Part shown: positions 45,636 through 64,000 of the stretch, in pieces
Numbering within the stretch: position 1 is the first letter of the stretch
Layout of the letters: each line of letters opens with the position of its first letter
Assembly (NCBI GenBank): GCA_031268335.1
Contig: JAIRXG010000021.1
Location: 1 to 64,000 of the forward strand
Source of the DNA: Campylobacteraceae bacterium
GTDB taxonomy: Bacteria; Campylobacterota; Campylobacteria; Campylobacterales; Campylobacteraceae
Length of the DNA: 64,000 nt
Reading direction: 5' to 3'
The notes under the pieces: model-generated
Told to the model about the DNA's origin: nothing
Database searches by the model: none
The model's input: only the letters and a program-made list of their open reading frames with translations
Translations under genes and position numbers: made by a program

Positions 45636-45641
45636 TATAAT
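45636..45641 (+). promoter_or_regulatory. Extended -10 box ahead of (AG)10 tract
   Basis: TGCTATAATG is a good extended -10 promoter. The expected transcript start (about 45648) is only some 20 bases before the AG tract, which would lie in the 5' leader of the envelope operon at 45856. Confidence 0.5.
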
Positions 45642-45666
45642 GATAGTTGGTATCAATAAATTCTGC

Positions 45667-45686
45667 AGAGAGAGAGAGAGAGAGAG
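45667..45686. repeat. (AG)10 simple sequence repeat
   Basis: This is an uninterrupted run of ten AG units. It also lies inside a 20-codon frame starting at ATG 45640 (AGAGG RBS upstream) and ending at 45702. With one unit fewer that frame would stay open to 45863, overlapping the TTG start of the outer-membrane protein gene at 45856. The tract is a slipped-strand mutation candidate. Confidence 0.85.
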
Positions 45687-45855
45687 CTTAAAAGATACTT
45701 AAAAAAATTTCTTCTTAATATAAACTTTAAATCACAAAAATATCCCCATTTTTTATATGCGTTTTTTGTCAACGTTTTTCTAATTCATTCAATAAAAAAA
45801 ATCATTTATAGCAACAAAATGATTTATAGATATAAAATCAATACAAGGATTTACA

Positions 45856-46455
45856 TTGAGTAAAATATTTAATTTTACACTTCTTTTTACGTTTTTATTG
45901 ATTAGTGCAATAAAAACACAAGCGGCAGATATAGGTTTTGAATTCGGTTTTGGTCTTGATACAAGCGGAGATCGGTTGGATTCTATAGAAAGAGCATATG
46001 GGACGGATTCATCCGGTCTTGGTATGTTTTTTGAATTGCAAGCCGGCATGCCAATTGGCATTGCGGAAAATTTTCTTGTTAAGCCCAAATTGTCATATCT
46101 TATGGGATATGTTTCTGTTGATTATGCCTATGGTGAAGATACATGTATGGATTCTCTTTTGATTTCTGGAGTTGCAGCAGAATATCATATAAATGGTTAT
46201 GAAAAAAACTCTTTTTTTGTAGGAGCGGAGATTGGTGCCATTAGCGCTTCAAGCGATAGCGACGGATATTACGAGCTCGATAGCAATGGCGTAAGTTACG
46301 GTATTTACGGCGGTTATAATTTTGGCGGCGGTTCAAAAATTTTACTAGGTTATAGAAGCATTCCTGTAGAGGTTACTTATCAAAATGGCTACAAGGAATC
46401 TAATAATTTCGGCGGACTTTCGTTGCAGTTCACCTATACTTTTTGGCTTAAATAG
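45856..46455 (+). CDS. Outer-membrane beta-barrel protein, OmpW/porin-like size
   Basis: The protein has 199 residues. A signal peptide (MSKIFNFTLLFTFLLISAIKTQA) precedes a short eight-strand-type barrel with alternating hydrophobic strands and G/Y-rich turns (IGFEFGFGLDTSGD, VSYGIYGGYNFGGGSK), ending FTYTFWLK. The start is TTG with an AAGGA RBS at good spacing; no closer ATG fits. It is first in an envelope operon with two lipoproteins and a DUF4105 gene. The specific family is not recognised. Confidence 0.75.
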   Translation: MSKIFNFTLLFTFLLISAIKTQAADIGFEFGFGLDTSGDRLDSIERAYGTDSSGLGMFFELQAGMPIGIAENFLVKPKLSYLMGYVSVDYAYGEDTCMDSLLISGVAAEYHINGYEKNSFFVGAEIGAISASSDSDGYYELDSNGVSYGIYGGYNFGGGSKILLGYRSIPVEVTYQNGYKESNNFGGLSLQFTYTFWLK

Positions 46456-54112: not shown

Positions 54113-54310
54113 TCCGTCATTGCGAGGAATGAAATGACGAAGCAATCCAGCAATACGAAGTGTTTAATACTTTAGATTTTTAATCCGATTTGTTTTTTGA
54201 ATGAATTTAAGATACCAACCGTTTTTGATAATTTTTCCGGATTGCCATGCCGTAAGCGGCTCGTAATGACGGAGGAAAAAGGGTTGTCACGCTGAGCTCG
54301 CAATGATGGA
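54113..54310. repeat. Cluster of palindromic CGTCATTGCGAG-type repeats, left of GLUG lipoprotein
   Basis: One unit at 54115-54150 begins CGTCATTGCGAGGAATGA and continues AATGACGAAGCAATCCAG; its ends CGTCATT/AATGACG are inverted repeats. A second, opposite unit runs 54239-54272 (GGATTGCC...AATGACGG) and a partial one lies at 54286-54309. Similar GTCATT...GCAATCC elements are spread through many bacterial genomes. The remainder of 53967-54506 has no gene apart from the leader of the lipoprotein. Confidence 0.75.
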
Positions 54311-54506
54311 TAAGGAAATCCCCAATCCCCAACAATCAGGTTACCTGCTTTTTGAAAAAACAGTTTCAAACTTCAAATCCTCCCAATCTTTTCTTATTTT
54401 TTTTAAAATAAATAGTAAAAATATACATTTTCTTAAGGTGATTTTTATAGCATTTCATATAGTATTCGTATCAATAATCAATATCAAATTAAAAAAAGGA
54501 GTTCAC

Positions 54507-56482
54507 ATGCTGTTTGCTATGGCAAATTCTCAATTGTCTGATAAATCGTTTCAGACTAATGTTCAAGTTTTAGATTTGTTTAAGTTTAAAGCGTTCTCTC
54601 TCTCTCTCTCTCTCTAGTTCAGATAATAAAGCTTTTATTTTTCTTAAGCGTTTTCTTTCTGTTTGTCGGATGCGGAGGCAGTGGAGGTTCTAATAATAAC
54701 GGAGTCGGTGATACAACCATTACAAATGCTGCAACGCCCGTTATAAATACTCAGCCTTCAGGTTCAACTTATACCAAAGGCGATACTTCAATACCTCTTA
54801 GCATAATTGCAACTGTAAGCGATGGAGGAACTTTAACTTATCAATGGTATTCAAACAGTGTGAACCAAAACAGTGGAGGAACTCTTATATCGGGAGCTGC
54901 AAGTTCATCTTATACTCCTTTAACTGCTGACGCTGGAACTGTATATTATTACGCGGTTGTTATTAATGCAAACGATAATGTCAACGGTGTTCAAACCGCA
55001 AGCGTTGCAAGCAGTACGGTTGAGATTGTTGTTAACGCGCCTCCAGTAACTTATGCTATTGGGTTTTATGATGAAAATTTAAGTTTTATAGAATCCGTAT
55101 CGTTACAGGAAGGCAATATCAATCCTTCAAATATAAAATCAGGTTCGTGGTACAAAAAAGGAGAAAATACGCCGTTAGTATTTTTCTATCTTGACAGCGA
55201 TATCAATCTTTATGCTATAGCAAATGTTAAAGAGATTATTACTCAGGAAGATTTAAATAATGTAAGAACTGATTTGAGCGGTAAGTATATTCTTTTAAAC
55301 GATATAGAGCTTAACGCAACAGATGGAGCGGCAGGATTTGACAGTGGAGGCTGGCAAAACATAGGCAGTAGTATTAACGTATGCTTTTCAGGTCTTTTCA
55401 ACGGCAATAACCACACGATAAGCAATCTTCAGATAAACAGAACTACCGATTATGTCGGTCTTTTTGGAATCATTCGCGGCGCTAATGTTAAAAATATCAG
55501 AGTTTGGGGCAATATAAAAGGAGCCGGATATGTCGGAGGTATAACGGGAAGGGTTCACTCCTCAAATCTCACAAACGCTTATTTTAAAGGAAATGTTGTC
55601 GGAACAAGCAGTGGTGTAGGAGGCATAGCGGGATATAATACCGACGGCGGTACTGTCTCACACTCTTTCTCCGAAGGAACTGTTAGCGGAGCAGGCAGTG
55701 TCGGGGGCATAGTAGGATACAACTCCGCAAGCATTGAGCGCTCTCACTCTTCTGCAAACCTCAGCGGCACAACCAATGTCGGCGGTATAGTAGGGTATCA
55801 TATCAGTAGCGCTATTATCAAAAACAGTTATTTCGCAGGAAATGTCAATGCCTCAGGCGAGAATGTCGGAGGTATAGCGGGACGCTCTCAGGACTCTGCG
55901 GTTGAAAACAGTTATTCTACGGGAAATGTCAGCAGTACAAGTCAAAATGTCGGCGGTATAATAGGATATAATTATACCTATTCATCAATCAAAAACAGTT
56001 ACTCTGCGGGAACTATCAGCGGAACAAACCGTATCGGCGGTATAGCAGGATATACCAATGGTGCTAGAAACGTTACCAACACTTACTCTACGGCAATTGT
56101 AATCGGCAGCGGAAATAATGTCGGAGGCATAACGGGATACATTTCAAACATTAGTCCTGTTTCAAACAATGTCGCCCTCAATCCTTCCATTAACGGAACA
56201 AGCGCCGTAAGCCGTATCGGGTCTTTTGCTAGCGGAACATTATCAAACAATTTTGCATCGGATGATGTATTGGTAAATGGCAGTACCGTAACGGGAGACG
56301 ATGGAAGCGGAGTTAATGGTATAGACAAAACTATCGCAGAGTTAAAAACTGAGACGACTTACTCCGATTCTATAACCAACGGCGGTCTTGGATGGAGTTT
56401 TGGAAATGACGATGAAAATCCTTGGAAAATAGACCTAAATAAAAACGATGGACTTCCATATCTTTATTGGCAGGAGTTGTAA
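54507..56482 (+). CDS. Phase-variable lipoprotein with Ig-like domain and GLUG repeats (out of frame here)
   Basis: An ATG at 54507 with AAGGAG six bases upstream opens a 36-codon frame that stops at TAG 54615-54617, immediately after a (TC)10 tract. From the tract onward another frame is open for over 1.8 kb. It encodes VQIIKLLFFLSVFFLFVGC (hydrophobic signal with lipobox cysteine at 54671), a GGSGGS linker, an Ig-like domain (TYQWYSNS ... TVYYYAVV) and about eight GLUG motifs (VGGIAGYN..GGTVSHSFSEG pattern), ending YLYWQEL. Losing one TC unit or gaining two joins start and body. As sequenced it is off. Such GLUG proteins are surface adhesins or polysaccharide-associated proteins; function is inferred. 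An internal GTG at 54860 could only give a signal-less fragment. Confidence 0.82.
54595..54614. repeat. (TC)10 simple sequence repeat in the lipoprotein leader
   Basis: Ten uninterrupted TC units lie between the start codon and the signal sequence, encoding SLSLSL in frame. They are followed by TAG in the start-codon frame. The tract has the length and position of contingency loci. Confidence 0.9.
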
Positions 56483-56496
56483 GACTCTTGTCGGCG

Positions 56497-56527
56497 CGTA
56501 AGGCGCTAGTCACCGCCTTACGTTTTT
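56497..56527 (+). terminator. Terminator of GLUG lipoprotein gene
   Basis: CGTAAGGCG (56497-56505) pairs with CGCCTTACG (56514-56522) and is followed by five T residues, 14 bases after the stop. Confidence 0.85.
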
Positions 56528-56639: not shown

Positions 56640-56990
56640 GTGTCATTGCAAGAAATGAAATGACGAAGAATTATCAAAAATAGTTGACATTTTAAATTCA
56701 TTCAAAAAAACAAGAACTTGTGATTTTAAAACTTTTAAGTATGAACACTTCGCGTTGCCGGATCGCTGCGTCAGTCGCTTTGTTCCTTCCTATCAATTAC
56801 GAAGGGTGACGCAGGAATGACGAAGAGAGTAGATTGCTTTGTTGTGCTTTGCATTCCTTGCAATAACGACTCAACACTCGTGTGGGTAGGTAATGTTTTT
56901 GGATTCCAGTCCGAGCGGGAATGACGTATTGGTGAGCGAATTACTACTTGAAACAGGAATGACAGAGAGAAGCGGAGATGACATAAGAGA
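56640..56990. repeat. Cluster of palindromic CGTCATT-type repeats, right of GLUG lipoprotein
   Basis: Degenerate units occur at 56642-56664 (GTCATTGCAAGAAATGAAATGAC), 56750-56830, 56832-56870 (minus orientation: GATTGCTTTGTTG...TTGCAATAACG) and 56900-56926 (GGATTCCAGTCCGAGCGGGAATGACG). They belong to the same general class as the left cluster and occupy most of the 730-base gap before the nickel operon. No gene is visible between them. Confidence 0.65.
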
Positions 56991-63530: not shown

Positions 63531-64000
63531 ATGTTTATTTTCTTAGACACAATCAGCGTTTCAAATTTATTCCAAAAAATAGCGCCTTTACTAATCGGTC
63601 TTTTTTTGATTGGCTGCGGAGGAAGAAGTTGCAACAATATGATAAATGCGGATACTCCGTTTATATCAGTTCAACCGCAAAGTATGACCTATACTGAAAA
63701 TGACAATGCAATTCCCTTGAATGTAACGGCTAGTGTAACAGACTGCGGCATACTATCGTATCAATGGTTTGAACTCGATGCAAACAGTACCGAAGAAGGA
63801 AAACAAGTCGCAACTATGCCAACCTATACTCCTCATACTAATGAGACAGGAGTAAAGTACTATTATGTCAAAGTTACAAATACAAATACAAATGCCACAG
63901 GAGATAAAATAATTTCCGTAACAAGTGACATCGCCATTATTACGGTAAAATCTGATACTCACACTGTAAGATTTTATGACGACAATCTTGATTTTATACA
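63531..64000 (+). CDS. Surface lipoprotein, paralog of the GLUG lipoprotein; 3' end outside window
   Basis: The ATG at 63531 follows an AAAGGAT RBS. The protein begins MFIFLDTISVSNLFQ and has a lipoprotein signal ending LLIGLFLIGC, then GGRSCNN. An Ig-like domain follows (SVQPQSMTYTENDNAIPLNV ... LSYQWFELD ... KYYYVKVTN) and then VRFYDDNLDFI at the window end. This order and the last motif match the lipoprotein at 54507-56482 (QPSGSTYTKGDTSIPLSI ... GFYDENLSFIES), so GLUG repeats probably follow beyond the window. It has no dinucleotide tract in its leader and is in frame. Confidence 0.82.
   Translation, partial: MFIFLDTISVSNLFQKIAPLLIGLFLIGCGGRSCNNMINADTPFISVQPQSMTYTENDNAIPLNVTASVTDCGILSYQWFELDANSTEEGKQVATMPTYTPHTNETGVKYYYVKVTNTNTNATGDKIISVTSDIAIITVKSDTHTVRFYDDNLDFI

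What the first reader, a model, noticed from the sequence alone, without database searches (positions are those of the whole stretch)
54507..56482. Contingency locus: (TC)10 tract switches a GLUG-repeat surface lipoprotein off
A strong RBS and ATG (54507) run into TAG right after ten TC units, while the lipoprotein signal, Ig-like domain and GLUG repeats are open in the frame reached by deleting one unit or adding two. Dinucleotide tracts in the 5' end of surface-protein genes are classic slipped-strand phase-variation switches. The intact body (over 600 codons with no lesion) argues that it is selected and sometimes expressed.
Basis: partly seen in the sequence, partly recalled or inferred. 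Interest (0 to 1): 0.85.

Follow-up and report, generated by a model that had tools for sequence, protein, structure and literature searches.

The report
Dinucleotide ON/OFF switch of surface lipoproteins
In an uncultured relative of Campylobacter, ten repeated TC units at the front of a surface-protein gene put the gene out of frame (OFF), and the same switch cassette recurs in front of 28 surface-lipoprotein genes in nine of the genus's 14 genomes, in ON and OFF versions, so these bacteria probably vary their surface by random slippage of repeats.

Summary
(TC)10 lies at 54595-54614. The ATG at 54507 (RBS AAGGAG) runs into TAG at 54615, and the 621-codon lipoprotein/GLUG frame has no start codon before its lipobox. 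In the genus (14 genomes) I found 28 lipoprotein genes with a leader ATG and a pure TC tract of 7-14 units at the same place, between a leader typically ending in LFKFKAF and the signal peptide. They fall in all three phases (6 ON, 22 OFF), with open, constrained bodies. Two same-genome pairs with identical leaders differ by one unit and flip phase (8 ON/9 OFF; 13 ON/12 OFF). The cassette sits on unrelated bodies (GLUG, RCC1, an unnamed ~220-aa family). Long TC tracts occur in 13/14 genus genomes against 19/106 others in the family; MutS1/MutL are not found. The mechanism is of a known kind (H. pylori oipA/sabA/hopZ CT tracts); the modular cassette is new. A second cassette, at window 45667, appears to place (AG)n in a leader ORF whose long frame ends on the start codon of a downstream surface gene: a phase-variable, translationally coupled leader. 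Switching itself was not observed (no reads available).

The parts
54496..54501 (+). ribosome-binding site AAGGAG of the leader
54507..54594 (+). leader of the switch cassette (MLFAMANSQLSDKSFQTNVQVLDLFKFKAF); its 3' part TTTAAGTTTAAAGCGT is conserved across the genus
54595..54614 (+). (TC)10 tract, coding Ser-Leu repeats in whichever frame is read; phase switch, OFF here
54615..54617 (+). TAG that ends the ATG frame directly after the tract (OFF state)
54587..54589 (+). stop that closes the lipoprotein frame upstream; no start codon between it and the lipobox
54617..54670 (+). signal-peptide hydrophobic core VQIIKLLFFLSVFFLFVG in the lipoprotein frame
54671..54673 (+). lipobox cysteine codon (FVG-C)
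54674..55100 (+). N-terminal region of the mature protein: flexible Gly/Ser/Asn linker, then a weakly supported Ig-like domain
55220..56482 (+). GLUG-repeat, mainly beta repeat region (beta-helix by model) and C-terminus; stop TAA 56480-56482
56496..56523 (+). 10-pair stem followed by T-run, terminator-like, directly after the gene
45640..45666 (+). second cassette: leader ATG with RBS (MIVGINKFC...)
45667..45686 (+). second cassette: (AG)10 tract coding (RE)n; leader frame stops 13 nt after it (OFF)
45687..45863 (+). second cassette: the one long open frame after the tract, ending at TAA 45861-45863 over the start of the next gene
45856..46455 (+). outer-membrane-protein-like gene (TTG start) overlapped by the leader frame of the second cassette

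Best explanation
A translational phase-variation (contingency) switch. Slipped-strand mispairing in the TC tract, in a genus where MutS1/MutL are not found, changes the number of units. Only one of three lengths joins the leader's ATG to the signal peptide and body, giving a surface lipoprotein with GLUG repeats; the other two lengths terminate early. The tract reads as (Ser-Leu)n in any frame, so in the ON state it is simply the beginning of the signal-peptide hydrophobic region and its exact length is tolerated. The assembled allele (10 units) is OFF. The 5' cassette (RBS, leader, tract, signal peptide) is a module shared among unrelated lipoproteins, so each genome carries several independent switches. 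Shown: frames, start-codon absence, recurrence, phase variety, constraint on bodies, modularity. Inferred: slippage and its rate, surface exposure, adhesin-like role.
For: Frames and missing start codon. 28 genus genes with the same architecture and at least 7 units: ON 6 / OFF 8 / OFF 14, not different from random phase (chi2 p = 0.16). One-unit pairs with identical leaders: L091 n8 ON vs L093 n9 OFF (79 identical nt upstream), L104 n13 ON vs L103 n12 OFF (94 identical nt). Bodies under constraint, dN/dS about 0.14-0.67, including OFF-OFF pairs. Own-genome paralogs C17, C4 and C31 have interrupted tracts that are in frame, as expected for switches that became locked ON. The two OFF frames stop early after the tract (median 17 nt to the farther stop vs 53 in codon shuffles). 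Tracts of at least 7 units in 13/14 genus genomes vs 19/106 others in the family (Fisher p = 5e-8). No MutL or MutS1 match over cut-off in any of 14 genomes, while controls rang. Leader type follows the genome more than the body.
Against: No read-level or isolate-level length variation could be examined at this locus; the genome is an 85% complete draft with one consensus allele. The ON-state leader is long (about 30 residues before the repeat), unusual for a signal peptide. ON alleles are fewer than one third when both cassettes are pooled (8/45, p = 0.016), so phases may not be neutral. The genes compared are related, so they are not fully independent.
Confidence: 0.9

Rival explanations
1. 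A fixed frameshift: the gene is a young pseudogene and the tract length has no regulatory role.
For: Only one (OFF) allele is seen; a syntenic relative lacks the gene altogether, so the gene is dispensable.
Against: Body of 621 codons without lesion; dN/dS well below 1 across relatives; the same tract at the same place in 27 other lipoprotein genes in all phases, which decay would not produce.
Confidence: 0.05
2. Assembly or sequencing error: the true tract has an in-frame length and the gene is always ON.
For: Draft assembly in 31 contigs; dinucleotide stutter is possible; raw reads not available.
Against: A 20-nt tract lies well inside a short read. An error would have to recur in 22 of 28 genes over nine genomes, while own-genome paralogs without a tract are in frame.
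Confidence: 0.03
3. The protein is made from the 10-unit allele by a non-canonical start (ATA/ATT/CTG) in the lipoprotein frame or by ribosomal or polymerase slippage on the tract, so the tract sets the level, not ON/OFF.
For: ATA and CTG codons exist in the signal-peptide region; repetitive tracts can favour slippage (general knowledge).
Against: No ATG/GTG/TTG there. Stops placed just after the tract in both other frames argue for tight termination. Interrupted-tract paralogs are in frame with the ATG.
Confidence: 0.05

Closest known systems
Helicobacter pylori oipA (hopH), sabA, hopZ, babA: CT-dinucleotide repeats in the 5' coding/signal-sequence region (PMC10564699, PMC3960876)
   Same: Same phylum, same repeat unit read on the coding strand, same place (signal-peptide region), same logic: unit number sets frame and early stop.
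   Different: Those are Hop outer-membrane beta-barrel proteins. Here the products are lipoproteins (GLUG, RCC1 and others), and a common leader cassette is shared by unrelated bodies within a genome.
Neisseria opa genes (CTCTT pentamers in the leader; from general knowledge)
   Same: Multi-copy family with a repeat in the signal peptide, each copy switching independently.
   Different: Pentanucleotide unit; one protein family; no modular reuse on unrelated bodies that I know of.
Campylobacter phasome (PhasomeIt, PMC6321876)
   Same: Same family by relationship; many simple-sequence-repeat contingency genes.
   Different: There 91% of tracts are poly-G/C and dinucleotides are rare (44 in all genomes studied). 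Here dinucleotide tracts are a major switch type, alongside poly-G.
GLUG-motif proteins; nearest solved folds are IgA1-protease-family entries (PDB 3n6z, 6xja)
   Same: GLUG repeats and repeat-type beta fold.
   Different: Pfam found only Glug and a weak Ig-like match in this protein, no protease domain.

Membership tests
Simple-sequence-repeat contingency locus (translational phase variation) | Pure short-unit repeat, unit not a multiple of three, in the 5' part of the ORF | tested here: met
   (TC)10 at 54595, leader ATG 54507
Simple-sequence-repeat contingency locus (translational phase variation) | Unit gain or loss moves the body in or out of the start codon's frame, with early stops otherwise | tested here: met
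Simple-sequence-repeat contingency locus (translational phase variation) | Tract length differs between related alleles and changes phase | tested here: met
   At paralog/ortholog level: 7-14 units, three phases; identical-leader pairs differing by one unit
Simple-sequence-repeat contingency locus (translational phase variation) | Reversible high-frequency switching at this locus within a population | not testable with these tools
   No reads, isolates or second genome of the species
GLUG repeat protein (PF07581) | Match above the curated cut-off | tested here: met
   61.6 bits vs cut-off 20.5, 6 stretches
Bacterial lipoprotein | Signal peptide ending in a lipobox cysteine | tested here: met
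   LFFLSVFFLFVG-C in frame, and the same motif in relatives; processing itself not tested
H. pylori Hop outer-membrane family | Hop beta-barrel outer-membrane protein | tested here: not met
   Only Glug and a weak Ig-like match in Pfam; the model is a GLUG repeat fold. It works like a Hop gene in switching only

The most novel reading that the evidence does not exclude
The genus carries a second, apparently undescribed switch type, also present in the window (45640-45863): a phase-variable leader ORF, M-I-x-x-I-x-x-F-C-(RE)n, whose single long reading frame runs about 130-370 nt to end on or near the start codon of a surface-protein gene. The (AG)n tract would then switch the downstream gene by translational coupling without touching that gene's own reading frame. 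Two exchangeable cassettes, (SL)n signal-peptide fusion and (RE)n coupled leader, would control many phase-variable surface proteins of the genus.
Probability: 0.6. Interest if true: 0.8.

Novelty: new variant of a known kind. Interest (0 to 1): 0.66.

Why it matters
It extends dinucleotide phase variation from a few H. pylori adhesins to a whole uncultured genus, and shows it packaged as a portable 5' cassette placed in front of unrelated surface lipoproteins. That is a clear, testable case for combinatorial surface variation in what are probably gut commensals rather than pathogens. The coupled-leader cassette, if confirmed, is a new way for a repeat to switch a gene whose own coding sequence stays intact, and would be missed by scans that look only for frame-broken genes.

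Tried and rejected
Alternative start in the lipoprotein frame: none before GTG 54860, which lies after the lipobox. Chance tract: 0 expected. Promoter-spacing role of the tract: no promoter-like match above shuffles around it, and the tract is inside the leader ORF. For the second cassette I considered a promoter or operator role (CTTAAA-n5-CTTAAA direct repeats after the tract, recalled as resembling an HP1043/CosR-type site). I prefer coupling, because a frame is open from tract to gene start in 11 of 15 loci with 0.94 expected; the operator idea is not excluded. Literature searches for GLUG with phase variation, and for coupled leaders with phase variation, found nothing. Host: record titles say only 'Campylobacteraceae bacterium isolate ...'. 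I recall these accession series as termite-gut metagenomes, but searches did not confirm it.

Full report
Observation. The window is contig C13 of a 1.65-Mb, 31-contig, 85% complete genome. At 54595-54614 there are ten TC units. ATG 54507, five bases after AAGGAG, reads MLFAMANSQLSDKSFQTNVQVLDLFKFKAFSLSLSL and stops at TAG 54615. The frame that carries VQIIKLLFFLSVFFLFVG-C and the GLUG repeats is closed upstream by a stop at 54587 and has no ATG, GTG or TTG before the lipobox. It is then open for 621 codons to 56482. No TC run of seven units is expected in shuffled windows. PF07581 is clear, the Ig-like domain weak. The AlphaFold model of the mature part (pLDDT 87) is nearly all beta with a long regular repeat region; the nearest solved folds are IgA1-protease-family entries, but no protease domain is present here. 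A terminator-like stem follows the gene.

The gene is not alone. In the same genome, the paralog at C23:31612 has a leader ATG, (TC)9 and a GLUG lipoprotein, again out of phase. C1 has a short tract, out of phase. C17, C4 and C31:31291 have the same kind of leader with an interrupted tract, all in phase. C2, C14, C13:63597 and C31:44193 have no tract and are in phase. This is the pattern expected of a switch that is sometimes lost in the ON position.

Genus survey. Long TC tracts occur in 13 of 14 genomes of the genus, against 19 of 106 other genomes of the family (Fisher p = 5e-8). Reading the tracts gave 28 lipoprotein genes in nine genomes with a leader ATG, at least seven pure units (7-14) and an open body (80-621 codons, a few cut by contig ends): 6 ON, 8 and 14 in the two OFF phases. 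The leader typically ends in L-F-K-F-K-A-F-(SL)n and is followed by a signal peptide such as LLAFFLSFSLIGC-GG. Two pairs in single genomes have identical leaders and differ by one unit and in phase: L091 (8, ON) and L093 (9, OFF), with 79 identical bases before the tract and 97% identity in the 60 bases after it; L104 (13, ON) and L103 (12, OFF), with 94 identical bases up to the contig end. Bodies that are OFF are still under constraint (dN/dS 0.14-0.67). Both off-frames meet stops soon after the tract (median 17 nt for the farther one, 53 in codon shuffles; the genes are related, so this is not an independent test for each).

The cassette is modular. Bodies fall into GLUG proteins, RCC1-repeat proteins (PF00415, E down to 3.5e-72), a family of about 220 residues with no Pfam match, and others. 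Leaders of different body classes in one genome are more alike (mean 0.68, up to 0.92) than leaders of the same body class in different genomes (0.59); shuffling genome labels over all pairs never reached the observed same-genome excess (0/2000). Several contigs break about 95-120 bases upstream of the tract (G005 C10, C13, C30; G009 C5, C14), as expected if the 5' cassette is repeated in the genome.

Repair background. No genome of the genus has a MutL or MutS1 match over the curated cut-off, while the controls do; the weak MutS1 matches are probably MutS2-like. This fits high slippage rates but does not prove them.

Locus history. In L213 (Gx481_bin170; helicase 92% identical) the helicase is followed directly by the same downstream genes as in the window. 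Homology resumes on both sides of a 3.2-kb block that holds the GLUG gene in the window. Other relatives carry other genes at this site, among them another lipoprotein (L153). The gene is a replaceable insert.

A second cassette. The other tract in the window, (AG)10 at 45667, belongs to a different recurring arrangement: RBS, ATG, a short leader M-I-x-x-I-x-x-F-C, (RE)n coded by (AG)n, then one frame that stays open for about 130-370 nt and in most loci ends within about 22 nt of the start of a lipoprotein or outer-membrane gene (ATGA overlaps in L095, L108, L226, L293). In 11 of 15 loci a frame is open from the tract through to the gene start; 0.94 are expected from dinucleotide shuffles. 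The other two frames stop within about 20 nt. In the window the long frame ends at TAA 45861-45863, over TTG 45856 of the next gene (the automatic gene pick for this locus was a later ATG and is counted there as not open). Of 17 such loci, 2 are in phase (my count). Related loci differ in phase, for example L095/L293 and L099/L290/L291. The simplest reading is a phase-variable leader ORF translationally coupled to the surface gene. This is inferred; an operator role of the CTTAAA repeats after the tract is not excluded.

Best explanation, rivals and status. The frame switch is shown as anatomy and by comparative phases; slippage in this population is inferred. Pseudogene, assembly error and non-canonical start are each given 3-5%. 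The mechanism is that of H. pylori oipA, sabA and hopZ (PMC10564699, PMC3960876), so the kind is known. The products, the modular cassette and the coupled variant were not found in the searched literature. In Campylobacter proper, dinucleotide tracts are a small minority (PMC6321876).

Noticed in passing
window 45640-45863: Second switch cassette: (AG)10 in a short leader ORF whose long frame ends on the start of an outer-membrane-type gene; same arrangement in about 17 loci of the genus, mostly out of phase.
   Followed up: partly
L086, L087, L098 (near positions 2127, 2498 rev, 2534 rev): TonB-dependent-receptor-like genes with (AG)7-10 immediately after the ATG; all three are out of frame.
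   Followed up: partly
L115 2515 (G000:C2:16915); also L089, L105, L112: (AG)8-9 inside a TetR-type regulator next to an efflux membrane-fusion gene; in frame in all four species, coding RERER. Possibly a switchable repressor.
   Followed up: partly
L054 1013: A G15 run in a GLUG-gene locus of another family of the order (G049); poly-G runs of 9 or more are also common in the genus.
   Followed up: no
window 63531-64000 and beyond: Another GLUG lipoprotein gene without a tract, in frame from its ATG, about 7 kb downstream.
   Followed up: partly
window 54117-54150 and 56640-56670: Short dispersed repeats (gtcattgcgaggaatgaaatgacgaag and similar) flank the GLUG gene on both sides, inside the block that is absent from L213.
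   Followed up: no
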